Origin: Marivirga aurantiaca
GTDB taxonomy: Bacteria > Bacteroidota > Bacteroidia > Cytophagales > Cyclobacteriaceae
Length of the DNA: 64,000 nucleotides
Direction: 5' to 3'
Assembly: GCF_016679925.1 (NCBI RefSeq)
Contig: NZ_JAEQBW010000004.1
Span: 124,001-188,000, forward strand
The translations under genes and the position numbers were made by a program. Under the pieces are notes generated by a model. It searched no databases, was not told the origin of the DNA, and worked only from the letters and a program-made list of their open reading frames with translations. This document shows positions 26,738-62,702 of the stretch, piece after piece; the first letter of the stretch is position 1; every line of letters starts with the position of its first letter.

Positions 26738-27817
26738 ATGAACCAAATTAATATGGAAACAAACACACAAAACATCGAAAAACTATTAGGTAAGGATGCG
26801 GAATCCTTACTAGGCCACAAATGTAAAACCATTGATAAAAATGAATTCCACCATCCTTCACCGGATTTTGTGGACAAGGTTTTTAGAGATAGTAACAGAA
26901 GTGCTCAGACCCTTAGAAATCTCAATGCTATCTATAACACCGGCCGATTGGCAGGTACAGGTTATCTTTCCATACTACCTGTCGATCAGGGCATTGAACA
27001 TTCCGGTGGAAGCGCTTTTGCACCCAATCCTATTTATTTCGACCCTGAAAACATTATAAAACTAGCTTTAGAAGCAGGATGCAACGCAGTAGCCACTACT
27101 ATGGGCTCACTAGCTATTCTTTCCAGAAAGTATGCGCATAAAATACCATTTGTAGCAAAGATTAATCATAATGAATTGCTTAGCTACCCAAATACCCATG
27201 ATCAGATTATGTTTGGATCAGTGGAGGATGCCTGGAATTTAGGGGCTGCTGCCGTAGGGGCTACAATTTATTTTGGATCAGAGGGATCCAATCGTCAAAT
27301 CATTGAAGTATCTCAAGCATTTGAACTAGCCCATGAGTTGGGAATGGCCACTATTCTTTGGTGTTATACCCGAAACAACGAGTTCAAAAAAGAGGGCAAA
27401 AACTATGAGACAGCTGCCGATTTAACCGGACAAGCCAATCATTTGGGAGTTACCATTCAGGCGGATATTATCAAGCAGAAATTACCCACTCATAATGGAG
27501 GCTACAAAGCAATTGATTTTGGCAAATCTCATCCTGACATGTATGAGAAGCTAAGTAGTGATCATCCTATTGATTTATGCCGATACCAGGTAGCCAATTG
27601 TTATATGGGGCGAATAGGCCTGATTAATTCCGGAGGGGAATCAAAAGGAGAAAGTGATTTGGCCGAAGCAGTAAGAACGGCAGTTATTAACAAAAGGGCT
27701 GGAGGTATGGGTTTGATTGTAGGGAGAAAAGCATTTCAAAGACCAATGAAGGAAGGCGTGCAACTGCTAAACCATATTCAGGATGTATACCTGGATAAGA
27801 AAATAGATTTGGCCTAA
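26738..27817 (+). CDS. fbaB: Class I fructose-bisphosphate aldolase (FbaB/DhnA type)
   Basis: A 359-residue aldolase of the DhnA-type Schiff-base family, cleaving fructose 1,6-bisphosphate to dihydroxyacetone phosphate and glyceraldehyde 3-phosphate. The 'LPVDQGIEHSGG' segment, 'VAKINHNELLSYPNTHDQ' and 'GSEGSNRQI' are characteristic. It is first in the plus-strand island. Met1 (26738) and Met6 (26753) are both possible starts. As a metal-independent enzyme it fits an auxiliary glycolytic or gluconeogenic role beside PfkB and GAPDH in the same island. Confidence 0.93.
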   Translation: MNQINMETNTQNIEKLLGKDAESLLGHKCKTIDKNEFHHPSPDFVDKVFRDSNRSAQTLRNLNAIYNTGRLAGTGYLSILPVDQGIEHSGGSAFAPNPIYFDPENIIKLALEAGCNAVATTMGSLAILSRKYAHKIPFVAKINHNELLSYPNTHDQIMFGSVEDAWNLGAAAVGATIYFGSEGSNRQIIEVSQAFELAHELGMATILWCYTRNNEFKKEGKNYETAADLTGQANHLGVTIQADIIKQKLPTHNGGYKAIDFGKSHPDMYEKLSSDHPIDLCRYQVANCYMGRIGLINSGGESKGESDLAEAVRTAVINKRAGGMGLIVGRKAFQRPMKEGVQLLNHIQDVYLDKKIDLA

Positions 27818-27887
27818 AAAGACAACAATACTATCTCATACAAACAGAAGTCAATAAAGTTTTTTAATCAATAAAATTTTAGAAATC

Positions 27888-28505
27888 ATGAAAGATGTTA
27901 AACTAGCAATAATTTATTACAGCTCAACAGGAACAAATCATCAATTGGCCAAATGGGCTGAAGAAGCCGGAAAAAATGCCGGAGTAAAAGAGGTTAGGCT
28001 CAGAAAAGTGCAGGAACTGGCACCAAAAGAAGCTATTCAGCAAAATGAAGATTGGGCCAAGCATGTGGAAGCAACCAAAGATATGCCTACTGTTTCATTA
28101 GATGACCTTGAGTGGGCTGATGCCATCGTTTTTAGTGCACCCACCCGCTATGGAAACCTCCCGTCTCAACTTAGCTCTTTTTTAGATACAACCGGAGGGC
28201 TATGGTTTAAAGGGAAACTAGCCAATAAAGTAGTAACGGGCATGACTAGCTCACAAAATATGCACGGAGGTCAGGAAACAACCCTTCTTTCACTTTATAA
28301 GAGCATGCACCACTGGGGAGCTCTGGTAGTAACTCCAGCCTATACAGCTGAAGTTCAATTTGAAGCCGGAGGAAATCCATATGGTGTAAGTGTAAACCCT
28401 AAGAGTGGGGGATTGACCGAAGCAATTAAAAAAGCAGTAGCCCACCAGGTAGAAAGAACTTTAACGGTTGCAGGATGGGTAAAGGCTGGAATGTCACAAC
28501 AATAA
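27888..28505 (+). CDS. wrbA: NAD(P)H:quinone oxidoreductase WrbA
   Basis: A 205-residue flavodoxin-fold FMN protein that reduces quinones by two electrons. The FMN phosphate loop is 'YYSSTGTNHQLA' (about 10-21), the second flavin loop 'SAPTRYGNLPSQLSSFLD' and the WrbA-specific 'TSSQNMHGGQETT' are present. It may protect against quinone redox cycling or hold electron balance under low oxygen. It lies 70 bases after fbaB and 87 before the HAD/trehalose-phosphatase fusion. Confidence 0.93.
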   Translation: MKDVKLAIIYYSSTGTNHQLAKWAEEAGKNAGVKEVRLRKVQELAPKEAIQQNEDWAKHVEATKDMPTVSLDDLEWADAIVFSAPTRYGNLPSQLSSFLDTTGGLWFKGKLANKVVTGMTSSQNMHGGQETTLLSLYKSMHHWGALVVTPAYTAEVQFEAGGNPYGVSVNPKSGGLTEAIKKAVAHQVERTLTVAGWVKAGMSQQ

Positions 28506-62006: not shown

Positions 62007-62039
62007 AAAGATGATTATGAGTTAAAAAGATTCCAACCT

Positions 62040-62702
62040 TTATAAAACCACTAGTTGGTTATTGATCCCTTTTACGCCTTCCACATAAGCAACTTTATCA
62101 GCCGCTACTCTTTTTGAAATGAGATTTGATACACGTCCCCGTAGGTTTACTATGCCATTTCTTACTTCAACAATAATCTCTGCGGAATTAACAAGAGGAC
62201 TTTTTTTAAGTGCGTTTTGTATACTCTCTGCAATCTTTTCATCCTTTAGTTCATTTGTCCACACTACGTTCAACTTATTGTTTACATCAACTATTCCGGA
62301 AATGCTAAAAGCTGTATTTTCAGCTACTCTCCTTTTCCAAAAGGCATCAACAGAACCCTCCATTGTGATTACACCTTTTTGGACCGTTACAGTAATTTTG
62401 GAGGAGTCAATGCGGGGATCCCATTGTAGCATATTTTCAATAGAGGATTTTATTTCACTGTCAGATAATACATAGGTTTCTTCAGGATAAGTTACCATTA
62501 TGTTATTTTCTACAACGTATACACCTGGTGTGGCTAATGCATCTTCTTCGGCTGATAGTTTTTCATAATAAGAAGGCACCATTCCCGATAAAGTAACTTT
62601 GGAGCCAGACACTTTTATTTCAATATCAGAGGATAGAATTCTGTTGTCTTCAGCCAACTGGTCCCTTATCATTTTTTCTTTGGTTTCTTTTACAACGGCC
62701 AT
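62040..62702 (-). CDS. Triple BON-domain protein
   Basis: A 220-residue protein composed of three consecutive BON domains (about 8-75, 80-150 and 152-220). Each ends in a strand such as 'VTLSGMVPSYYEKLSAE', 'VITMEGSVDAFWKRRVAE' and 'IVNLRGRVSNLISKRVAA', followed by a 'V..V.N.L.V' strand. There is no signal peptide, so it is probably cytoplasmic, unlike OsmY. BON domains bind membranes or small ligands and mark stress-response loci. It leads the operon with the acyl-CoA synthetase. Confidence 0.92.
   Translation of the reverse strand: MAVVKETKEKMIRDQLAEDNRILSSDIEIKVSGSKVTLSGMVPSYYEKLSAEEDALATPGVYVVENNIMVTYPEETYVLSDSEIKSSIENMLQWDPRIDSSKITVTVQKGVITMEGSVDAFWKRRVAENTAFSISGIVDVNNKLNVVWTNELKDEKIAESIQNALKKSPLVNSAEIIVEVRNGIVNLRGRVSNLISKRVAADKVAYVEGVKGINNQLVVL

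What the first reader, a model, noticed from the sequence alone, without database searches (positions are those of the whole stretch)
26738..62702. Auxiliary carbon/energy island with DosR-regulon-like content
Over 36 kb the window groups FbaB, WrbA, HAD-TPP, GH65, two type II P-type ATPases, PfkB, GpmI, CPA2 antiporter, GAPDH, PEP synthase, D-lactate-type dehydrogenase, VIT1/CCC1, AceE/AceF/Lpd, ADP-forming acyl-CoA synthetase and a BON protein. From established knowledge, the M. tuberculosis DosR hypoxia regulon includes otsB1 (Rv2006), pfkB (Rv2029c) and the ATPase ctpF (Rv1997). The overlap in gene types, in an unrelated phylum, suggests a survival module for oxygen or energy limitation that couples sugar-phosphorolysis glycolysis to ion homeostasis. 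The functional link is inference.
Basis: partly seen in the sequence, partly recalled or inferred. Interest (0 to 1): 0.75.

Follow-up and report, generated by a model that had tools for sequence, protein, structure and literature searches.

The report
Transferred sugar-and-ion survival gene island
A 36,000-base block of spare sugar-burning enzymes and ion pumps was inserted as one piece into this bacterium, and a core of the same genes turns up linked on plasmids and in low-oxygen gene sets of unrelated bacteria, which suggests a portable kit for living through energy shortage.

Summary
The listed genes are there, and the block is a physical unit: in 8 of 9 same-genus genomes its two flanking genes sit 147-589 bp apart with nothing between, so window ~26,465-62,807 is one ~36.3 kb insertion. 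A partly collinear relative (FbaB, HAD-TPP, GH65, ATPase, PpsA, second ATPase, hydroxyacid dehydrogenase; 54-80% identity) sits in another genus of the family. HAD-TPP + GH65 is one fused ORF in Actinomycetota loci, like M. tuberculosis OtsB1 (domain make-up recalled). HAD-TPP-GH65 with PfkB and PpsA recurs on alphaproteobacterial plasmids and in a DosR-like gene set on a Rhodococcus plasmid. Papers report low-oxygen induction of M. tuberculosis otsB1/ctpF and Bradyrhizobium PpsA/PfkB. Against: no DosR/DosS, Usp or Hsp20 (23 of 24 ORFs scanned); FNR-like sites at chance; AceE operons unlinked within ~20 kb in 10 of 10 family loci examined; phosphorolysis by GH65 undecided; antiporter, GAPDH and PDH counterparts on the plasmids match by type only. 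So: a real, laterally acquired carbon/ion island resembling the carbon arm of dormancy regulons; its oxygen link is inferred.

The parts
26465..62807 (.). whole island (bounds somewhere within 26453-26737 and 62703-62879), inserted between a DUF6962 gene (25766-26452, -) and a gene from 62880 on (+) that looks by eye like a sensor histidine kinase (not scanned)
   Evidence: flanks adjacent in 8 of 9 same-genus genomes
26738..27817 (+). class I fructose-bisphosphate aldolase (FbaB)
   Evidence: NF006707 652 bits over cut-off 327; 80% relative in G538
27888..28505 (+). WrbA-like flavodoxin-fold reductase
   Evidence: PF03358; an annotated flavodoxin-domain gene also lies beside otsB-GH65 on pDK1
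28593..30143 (+). bifunctional beta-phosphoglucomutase-family HAD + trehalose-6-phosphate phosphatase
   Evidence: TIGR02009 172 bits (cut-off 153), TIGR00685 184 bits (cut-off 68); catalytic motifs at residues 15, 281, 317, 438, 463
30172..32595 (+). GH65 alpha-glucoside phosphorylase or hydrolase
   Evidence: PF03632/PF03636/PF03633; PDB 9lb6, 3wiq; motifs
32616..35696 (+). type II P-type ATPase 1 (Ca2+-ATPase-like) with acidic insert
   Evidence: Pfam; PDB best Ca2+-ATPase (6zhf, 9euq lmo0841); PEGL and NLLSD motifs
35709..36659 (+). PfkB, 6-phosphofructokinase isozyme 2 type
   Evidence: PDB 3uqe E 3e-78
36700..38259 (+). cofactor-independent phosphoglycerate mutase (second copy)
   Evidence: TIGR01307; other copy G000:C31:271086
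38294..39520 (+). cation:proton antiporter
   Evidence: PF00999
39593..40597 (-). GAPDH type I (second copy)
   Evidence: TIGR01534; 47% to the G000:C22 copy
40945..41421 (-). GAPDH remnant: N-terminal part joined in frame to the C-terminal tail, catalytic Cys region absent
41635..44019 (+). PEP synthase (PpsA)
   Evidence: TIGR01418
44087..47329 (+). type II P-type ATPase 2 with acidic insert
   Evidence: Pfam
47329..48324 (+). D-2-hydroxyacid dehydrogenase
   Evidence: PF02826/PF00389
48349..48870 (+). VIT1/CCC1-family transporter
   Evidence: PF01988
50390..51286 (+). sulfotransferase
   Evidence: PF00685
51888..52628 (-). DUF4397 protein (36-39% relatives between ATPase1 and PpsA in G538 and G566; also in G585 and G519)
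53025..55694 (+). AceE, homodimeric-type PDH E1
   Evidence: PF17831
55724..57160 (+). AceF, PDH E2
   Evidence: PF00198, PF00364, PF02817
57185..58600 (+). Lpd, PDH E3
   Evidence: PF07992, PF02852
58799..59833 (+). AI-2E-family transporter
   Evidence: PF01594
59874..62006 (-). ADP-forming acyl-CoA synthetase (fused alpha-beta)
   Evidence: PF13549/PF13607/PF13380
62040..62702 (-). BON-domain protein (3 BON stretches)
   Evidence: PF04972

Best explanation
A ~36 kb accessory island was inserted between two divergent chromosomal genes; no mobility gene was seen in it. Shown: the insertion, its absence from the site in relatives, and the recurring linkage of a core (HAD-TPP, GH65, PfkB, PpsA, FbaB, type II ATPase, hydroxyacid dehydrogenase). 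Inferred: it works as a by-pass energy line for times when respiration or carbon supply fails. The trehalose-6-phosphate/trehalose pool (the genome has a probable OtsA-OtsB ORF) is opened by the TPP domain and GH65; if GH65 is a phosphorylase, the beta-glucose-1-phosphate is turned to G6P by the beta-PGM domain, saving one ATP. PfkB, FbaB, GAPDH and GpmI carry it down; AceE/AceF/Lpd plus the ADP-forming acyl-CoA synthetase yield acetate and ATP; hydroxyacid dehydrogenase takes surplus NADH; PpsA allows the way back. The P-type pumps and antiporter hold Ca2+/Na+/K+ gradients. It resembles the carbon arm of actinobacterial DosR-type and rhizobial microoxia regulons but lacks their sensors and stress proteins.
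For: Insertion: flanks adjacent in 8 of 9 same-genus genomes, 147-183 bp apart in 7 and 589 bp in G004. No close HAD-TPP match (best E about 1e-21 or weaker) in 9 of 9 same-genus genomes, two of them 86-88% complete. Linkage in the family: 20 of 244 other sampled genomes match at E<=1e-55, 17 with both HAD and TPP, 3 with TPP only; all 20 loci were fetched and 12 carry at least one further island gene type on the fetched stretch. All 7 genomes with ATPase1 at E<=1e-200 are among the 20 (hypergeometric 8e-9, kinship not corrected, same draw of genomes assumed; 4 of 4 genera within 10 of 83, 1e-4). Genome collection: 7 of 33 full-length HAD-TPP loci carry ATPase, PpsA, PfkB or GAPDH matches, against 0 of 47 other loci (Fisher 0.0013; taxon-confounded). 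Plasmids: Indioceanicola (conjugative), two Croceicoccus and Rhodococcus pDK1 carry HAD-TPP-GH65 + PfkB + PpsA. Low-oxygen induction elsewhere: otsB1, ctpF (PMC4916473); PpsA blr4655 and PfkB blr4659, protein log2FC 4.3 and 5.2 (PMC6515984). OtsB1 detected only in carbon starvation in one proteome (PMC12090744).
Against: No regulator, Usp, Hsp20 or CBS in 23 of 24 island ORFs scanned. FNR-like sites 7 against 6.45 expected. AceE operons show no other island gene within ~20 kb in 10 of 10 loci examined (in three g13 genomes GH65-HAD-TPP lies 27-32 kb further on). ACD has only ~40% relatives in 9 of 244 others. 8 of 20 family loci and 26 of 33 genome-collection loci show no further island gene (many contigs short). 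The plasmid antiporters, GAPDH, PDH E1 and acetate-CoA ligase match by annotated type only: the window's proteins give no tblastn match there at 1e-8, AceF 27% and pDK1 PpsA 35%. Lpd-like matches occur in 6 of the 47 other loci. The bin of the closest relative outside the phylum (L073) gave no ATPase1 match, which alone shows little. Four plasmid loci found by ATPase2 alone lack PpsA, PfkB and otsB-GH65 annotations. GC3 does not differ from the flank. No expression data.
Confidence: 0.5

Rival explanations
1. It is an osmotic, salt or desiccation module: trehalose turnover plus Ca2+/Na+/K+ pumps, antiporter and a BON protein adjust solutes and ions, with the glycolytic genes supplying carbon.
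For: The Bacteroidales locus L100 has HAD-TPP-GH65 between alpha-amylase-family genes, an OtsA-OtsB fusion and a mechanosensitive channel; an AA_permease/SLC12-type gene flanks the G538 version; BON and antiporter genes in the island.
Against: Does not explain PfkB, PpsA, PDH and acyl-CoA synthetase, nor the low-oxygen and starvation induction of counterparts in other bacteria.
Confidence: 0.22
2. Only the left part (26738-48324) is a module; the right part (VIT1, sulfotransferase, DUF4397, AceE-AceF-Lpd, AI-2E, ACD, BON) is a set of separate acquisitions at an insertion hot spot.
For: The collinear family version covers FbaB to DLDH only; AceE operons show no other island gene within ~20 kb.
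Against: The empty site holds at most ~0.6 kb in 8 of 8 relatives where it could be read; pDK1 links (other types of) PDH and acetate-CoA ligase to ppsA, PfkB and otsB-GH65; G005 has ATPase, AI-2E and ACD-PpsA within 15 kb; DUF4397 lies inside the G538 version.
Confidence: 0.35
3. The island is ancestral to the genus and was lost in the other species.
For: Relatives in the same family carry related islands.
Against: Needs loss, with a clean join, along several lines of the genus; none of 9 same-genus genomes has a close HAD-TPP match and none of the 8 in the family draw has AceE or ATPase1 at the thresholds used.
Confidence: 0.07
4. GH65 is a hydrolase (trehalose-6-phosphate or trehalose), so the line is not phosphorolytic and the beta-PGM-like domain has another substrate.
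For: Closest solved chain 9lb6 is named trehalose-6-phosphate hydrolase, E 7e-144, ahead of kojibiose phosphorylase 3wiq; Glu702 in TxEGIH is kept in 45 of 45 rows of at least 40% identity that reach it (some loci overlap) and in 9lb6.
Against: The phosphate-site Lys, Ser-Ser/Thr and His that PMC8626586 describes for phosphorylases and found replaced in the hydrolase FjGH65A are kept here (Lys614, Ser661-Thr662, His705; my reading of the alignments); 9lb6 keeps them too. In the family all 15 loci with GH65 also have the beta-PGM part; the Rubrobacter plasmid has TPP-GH65 without a HAD match.
Confidence: 0.4

Closest known systems
M. tuberculosis DosR regulon (otsB1 Rv2006, pfkB Rv2029c, ctpF Rv1997)
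   Same: three gene types, including a TPP gene of OtsB1 type; list read in PMC4090907 Table 3
   Different: here on one island, HAD-TPP and GH65 as separate genes, no DosRST, Usp, HspX, CBS; extra FbaB, GAPDH, GpmI, PpsA, AceEF. Sequences were not compared with M. tuberculosis
Rhodococcus sp. DK17 plasmid pDK1, ~206-291 kb
   Same: otsB-GH65 fusion (38/49% to the window), PfkB 45%, PpsA 35%; by type: flavodoxin, PDH E1/E2, acetate-CoA ligase, cation:proton antiporter
   Different: adds response regulator + GAF kinase, many Usp, Hsp20, CBS, wax-ester synthases, hydrogenase, narGHJI; PDH of alpha/beta type
Indioceanicola profundi conjugative plasmid unnamed3, ~42-94 kb
   Same: HAD-TPP 47%, GH65 56%, PpsA 52% next to hydroxyacid dehydrogenase 33%, type II ATPase 37-38%, PfkB 44%; by type antiporter and GAPDH
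   Different: type II GAPDH, glycogen genes, CBS, conjugation genes; ATPase split by an IS630 element
Bradyrhizobium diazoefficiens microoxia-induced cluster bll4644-blr4659
   Same: PpsA, PfkB-family kinase, glucokinase, induced at 0.5% O2 (PMC6515984 Table 2; passages read)
   Different: Usp, CBS, DnaJ, nitroreductase, PCMT present; HAD-TPP-GH65 not seen in the passages; homology to this island not tested
Islands of genus g253 (complete in G538 and G566, partial in G585, G605) and G519
   Same: FbaB, HAD-TPP, GH65, ATPase1, DUF4397, PpsA, ATPase2, DLDH in the same order (54-80% identity, DUF4397 36-39%)
   Different: no match there to WrbA, PfkB, GpmI, antiporter, AceEF, ACD or BON; HAD and TPP are separate ORFs in G538; ATPases without the long acidic insert in G538

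Membership tests
DosR regulon | transcription controlled by DosR through DosR boxes | not testable with these tools
   no expression data; no dosR/dosS-type gene among 23 of 24 island ORFs scanned
DosR regulon | shared gene types otsB1, pfkB, ctpF | tested here: met
   gene types; list in PMC4090907; orthology not tested
DosR regulon | universal stress proteins, Hsp20/HspX, CBS/Hrp1, Acg | tested here: not met
   none among 23 of 24 island ORFs scanned with Pfam (51295-51795 not scanned)
OtsB1-type HAD-TPP-GH65 | beta-PGM-like HAD + trehalose-phosphatase + GH65 in one protein or adjacent genes (definition recalled) | tested here: met
   single ORFs of 1320-1393 aa in L080, L087, L101, L103 (Actinomycetota) and L082
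OtsB1-type HAD-TPP-GH65 | catalytic residues of TPP and beta-PGM present | tested here: met
   DYDGT, SGRD, K439, GDDITDED; DMDGVIT, H27, R65, K173, ED197-198 by alignment with 1lvh; residue roles recalled
GH65 phosphorylase | phosphate site Lys, His, two Ser; no general-base Glu | tested here: inconclusive
   site kept with one Ser to Thr, but Glu702 also kept
genomic island | inserted block absent from the same site in relatives | tested here: met
   8 of 9 same-genus genomes; the ninth unreadable
genomic island | integrase, tRNA or direct repeats at the ends, odd composition | tested here: not met
   no tRNA, no integrase or transposase among 23 of 24 ORFs scanned, longest shared word 9 bp vs 8.8 shuffled, GC 0.386 vs 0.375
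Ca2+-type P-type ATPase (IIA/IIB) | best match to Ca2+-ATPases, PEGL in M4 and NxxxD in M6 (motif roles recalled) | tested here: met
   PDB best hits for ATPase1 are bacterial Ca2+-ATPases; motifs in both; TIGR01522 below its cut-off, so ion specificity is unproved

The most novel reading that the evidence does not exclude
HAD-TPP-GH65 + PfkB + PpsA (with type II ATPase and antiporter) is a transmissible dormancy-carbon cassette that moves between phyla on plasmids and islands and is hooked up locally to whatever low-oxygen regulator the host has; the otsB1/pfkB/ctpF genes of the mycobacterial DosR regulon are one domesticated version, and the unknown job of OtsB1 is to turn T6P/trehalose into glucose and G6P.
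Probability: 0.33. Interest if true: 0.8.

Novelty: new variant of a known kind. Interest (0 to 1): 0.6.

Why it matters
The carbon side of dormancy and microoxia regulons is known gene by gene but not explained; the function of OtsB1 of M. tuberculosis is called unknown in a 2024 review (PMC11046441). A bacterium that received genes of these types as one insertion, next to relatives with the empty site, gives a natural before/after comparison: does one 36 kb block buy survival without oxygen or food? The plasmid versions in other phyla suggest that endurance of energy shortage can be acquired like a resistance trait.

Tried and rejected
Oxygen-regulator (FNR-like) sites: 7 found, 6.45 expected by shuffling; CRP-like and Bacteroidota TAnnTTTG motifs upstream of the operons showed nothing shared. 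End repeats: none above chance. Composition: no foreign signature. RNA families and tRNAs: none. AceE as a marker of the whole island: rejected; no other island gene within ~20 kb in 10 of 10 loci examined (the loci of G503 and G597 were fetched but not examined), although 7 of 12 AceE genomes also have HAD-TPP or TPP. In G021, G508 and G548 (one genus) the AceE operon and GH65-HAD-TPP are 27-32 kb apart; of nine ORFs between them scanned in G021, eight were unrelated and one, next to GH65, is a transketolase. The ACD/PpsA/ATPase cluster in same-genus G005 looked like a second version, but lies amid curli and unassigned genes; kept as a side note. ATPase alone as an anchor on plasmids: unspecific (4 of 463 records opened; one has an antiporter and a Usp beside it). 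Literature searches for a described island of this kind: searches returned no paper, 75 and 111 returned 10 and 3 whose listings do not describe it; only open-licence PMC papers are searchable. Papers: passages found by term search in PMC6515984, PMC8626586, PMC8537180, PMC11046441, PMC12090744, PMC4090907, PMC4916473, PMC4082495; none read whole; all others seen only as search listings. On re-checking, the confidence in the best explanation was lowered from 0.55 to 0.5 because several plasmid counterparts match by gene type only.
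Full report
What is there. The stretch 26738-62702 holds 24 ORFs (my list), 93% coding. The eight genes FbaB, WrbA-like, HAD-TPP, GH65, ATPase1, PfkB, GpmI, antiporter run on one strand with gaps of 12-87 bp, so they read as one operon; PpsA, ATPase2, DLDH, VIT1 (gaps -1 to 67 bp) as a second; AceE, AceF, Lpd (24-29 bp) as a third; BON and ACD as a fourth (operons inferred from spacing). PfkB is closest to 6-phosphofructokinase isozyme 2 (PDB 3uqe, E 3e-78). 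ATPase1 is closest to bacterial Ca2+-ATPases (6zhf, 9euq).

One insertion. DNA searches with window 18001-38000 and 44001-64000 in the ten genomes of the genus (own included) show that the left neighbour (DUF6962) and the right neighbour (a gene that looks by eye like a sensor kinase) lie side by side in G001-G007 and G009; in G008 they are on different contigs. Reading these sites gives an intergenic space of 147-183 bp in seven and 589 bp in G004 (unaligned ends subtracted by hand), against 36.4 kb here. A close HAD-TPP match is missing from 9 of 9 same-genus genomes (only weaker OtsA-OtsB-like and single HAD hits); AceE and ATPase1 are missing from the 8 same-genus genomes in the family draw. 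Gain in this genome is the simplest reading. No integrase, transposase, tRNA or end repeat was found and composition matches the host, which would fit transfer from a relative and recombination rather than a known mobile element.

Auxiliary copies. Elsewhere the genome has a GAPDH 47% identical, a GpmI (65% DNA match), two PfkA-type PFKs, E1_dh-family genes including a 358-aa frame at G000:C31:116916, and a 732-aa frame with a TPP-like match that is probably OtsA-OtsB. So the island adds second copies of chosen steps.

Linkage in the family. Two relatives' contigs suggest the family is Cyclobacteriaceae by NCBI title (L081 has the length of G013:C28 and an identical GH65, L085 those of G503:C502). 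Of 244 other sampled family genomes, 20 match HAD-TPP at E<=1e-55, three of them (G022, G036, G516) in the TPP part only. All 20 loci were fetched. Twelve carry further island gene types on the fetched stretch (tblastn E<=1e-15): G538 and G566 have FbaB, HAD-TPP, GH65, ATPase1, DUF4397, PpsA, ATPase2, DLDH in the window's order; G585 FbaB, GH65, ATPase1, DUF4397; G605 GH65, ATPase1; G519 GH65, DUF4397, PpsA, ATPase2, DLDH; G518 and G036 ATPase1, PfkB; G452 PfkB; G467 FbaB, GH65, PfkB; G553 GH65, PfkB; G516 PfkB, GAPDH (81%); G328 GH65 and a 45-46% ATPase. G522 has FbaB-ATPase1 on a different contig. G013, G021, G022, G503, G508, G543, G548 and the HAD-TPP contig of G522 show none. GH65 itself is at 15 of the 20. 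All 7 genomes with ATPase1 at E<=1e-200 are among the 20 (kinship not corrected). The order changes from genome to genome, so this is a mosaic kit rather than one frozen operon. The AceE operon has no other island gene within ~20 kb in 10 of 10 loci examined, of 12 found; in G021, G508 and G548, of one genus, GH65-HAD-TPP lies 27-32 kb from it.

Other genomes. In 33 with full-length HAD-TPP, GH65 lies downstream in 33 (in L091 with a PfkB between); in four Actinomycetota loci and one Desulfobacteraceae locus the pair is one ORF of 1320-1393 aa. Seven of the 33 also carry ATPase, PpsA, PfkB or GAPDH matches (L082, L087, L091, L099, L101, L102, L103), against 0 of the 47 loci matched in the HAD part only (mostly Streptomyces; one, L106, has a separate TPP; Fisher 0.0013, confounded by taxon). 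Six of the 47, none of the 33, have Lpd-like matches. Flanks are at most 10 kb and often shorter. Nocardia L101 has the fusion beside a LuxR-type response regulator, a type II ATPase, a nitroreductase-family protein, a Usp and a phosphoketolase; neighbours scanned in Actinomycetota L087 and L103 and in L082 were mostly unrelated or unassigned. A maximum-likelihood tree of 55 GH65 rows puts the window in a 10-row clade (100/99) of family genomes plus one Delongbacteria sequence (67% identity), apart from the Bacteroidales and the G013-type family sequences. The Delongbacteria bin gave no ATPase1 match, and a single short contig in a bin could be contamination.

Plasmids. tblastn of HAD-TPP finds 38 PLSDB records at E<=1e-40. 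I opened eight loci (H1-H5, H8, H9, H12; H2 has no annotation and was read by tblastn). Those of Indioceanicola, Croceicoccus (two strains) and Rhodococcus DK17 carry HAD-TPP-GH65 + PfkB + PpsA; PpsA is followed by a hydroxyacid dehydrogenase in the first three; Indioceanicola adds an antiporter, a GAPDH and a type II ATPase interrupted by an IS630 element. pDK1 also has PDH E1/E2, acetate-CoA ligase, a flavodoxin, a response regulator with GAF kinase, many Usp, Hsp20, CBS, hydrogenase and narGHJI. Antiporters, GAPDH, PDH E1 and acetate-CoA ligase there match the island by annotated type, not by tblastn at 1e-8. The other four (Legionella lytica, Nitrobacter, Rhodococcus WAY2, Rubrobacter) lack PfkB and PpsA on the stretch shown. 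As a control, four plasmid loci found by ATPase2 alone show no PpsA, PfkB or otsB-GH65 annotation (the PLSDB gene table is incomplete).

How it may work. TPP and beta-PGM catalytic motifs are intact. GH65 keeps the phosphate-site Lys, Ser/Thr and His described for phosphorylases (PMC8626586) but also a Glu that it shares with the chain named trehalose-6-phosphate hydrolase, so phosphorolysis is open. With either chemistry, T6P or trehalose could end as glucose and G6P and enter PfkB-FbaB-GAPDH-GpmI; PDH plus ADP-forming acyl-CoA synthetase would give ATP and acetate. This flow is inference from enzyme families. Oxygen: M. tuberculosis otsB1 and ctpF rise in hypoxia (PMC4916473), OtsB1 protein was detected only in the carbon-starved samples of one study, whose authors find the DosR regulon less central there (PMC12090744), and Bradyrhizobium PpsA and PfkB rise at 0.5% O2, PfkB in the significant core list and PpsA in the wider list (PMC6515984). 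None of this is measured in the present organism, and no sensor was found in the island.

Verdict. The DosR analogy holds for gene content, fails for regulators and stress proteins, and remains a hypothesis for function.

Noticed in passing
window 33768-34205 and 45254-45856: Both P-type ATPases carry a long acidic insert (34-38% D+E against 14% elsewhere) between phosphorylation motif and nucleotide domain, with a shared IDV..VE.DKVKI.VS motif and poly-Glu run; the G538 relatives lack it, G518 has a shorter one.
   Followed up: partly
window 40945-41421 (-): GAPDH remnant with an internal in-frame deletion that removes the catalytic Cys region, beside the intact GAPDH.
   Followed up: partly
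L225-L226 (G005:C1:2357000-2396800): Same-genus genome with type II ATPase, AI-2E transporter and ACD-PpsA (25-58% to the island's) near a PAS/HisKA_3 kinase, a LuxR-type regulator and curli genes.
   Followed up: partly
genomes of family f36 (e.g. L045, L049): 81 genomes of two genera in the phylum sample match the HAD part in frames of mostly ~1060 aa; tblastn also finds GH65 in the loci fetched from them, so they look like beta-PGM-GH65 fusions without TPP.
   Followed up: no
L091 1-14566: Eisenbacteria contig with PpsA, two PfkB, type II ATPase, HAD-TPP, GH65 next to ATP synthase A-chain and alpha/beta-family genes.
   Followed up: no
L236 5104-8696: Type II ATPase gene on the Indioceanicola plasmid interrupted by an IS630-family transposase.
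   Followed up: no
window 48892-49731 (-) and 50390-51286 (+): A sulfotransferase gene and an unassigned neighbour inside the island, with no obvious tie to the carbon module.
   Followed up: no
L038 13181-17722 (G021): A transketolase gene lies next to GH65-TPP-HAD in G021.
   Followed up: no
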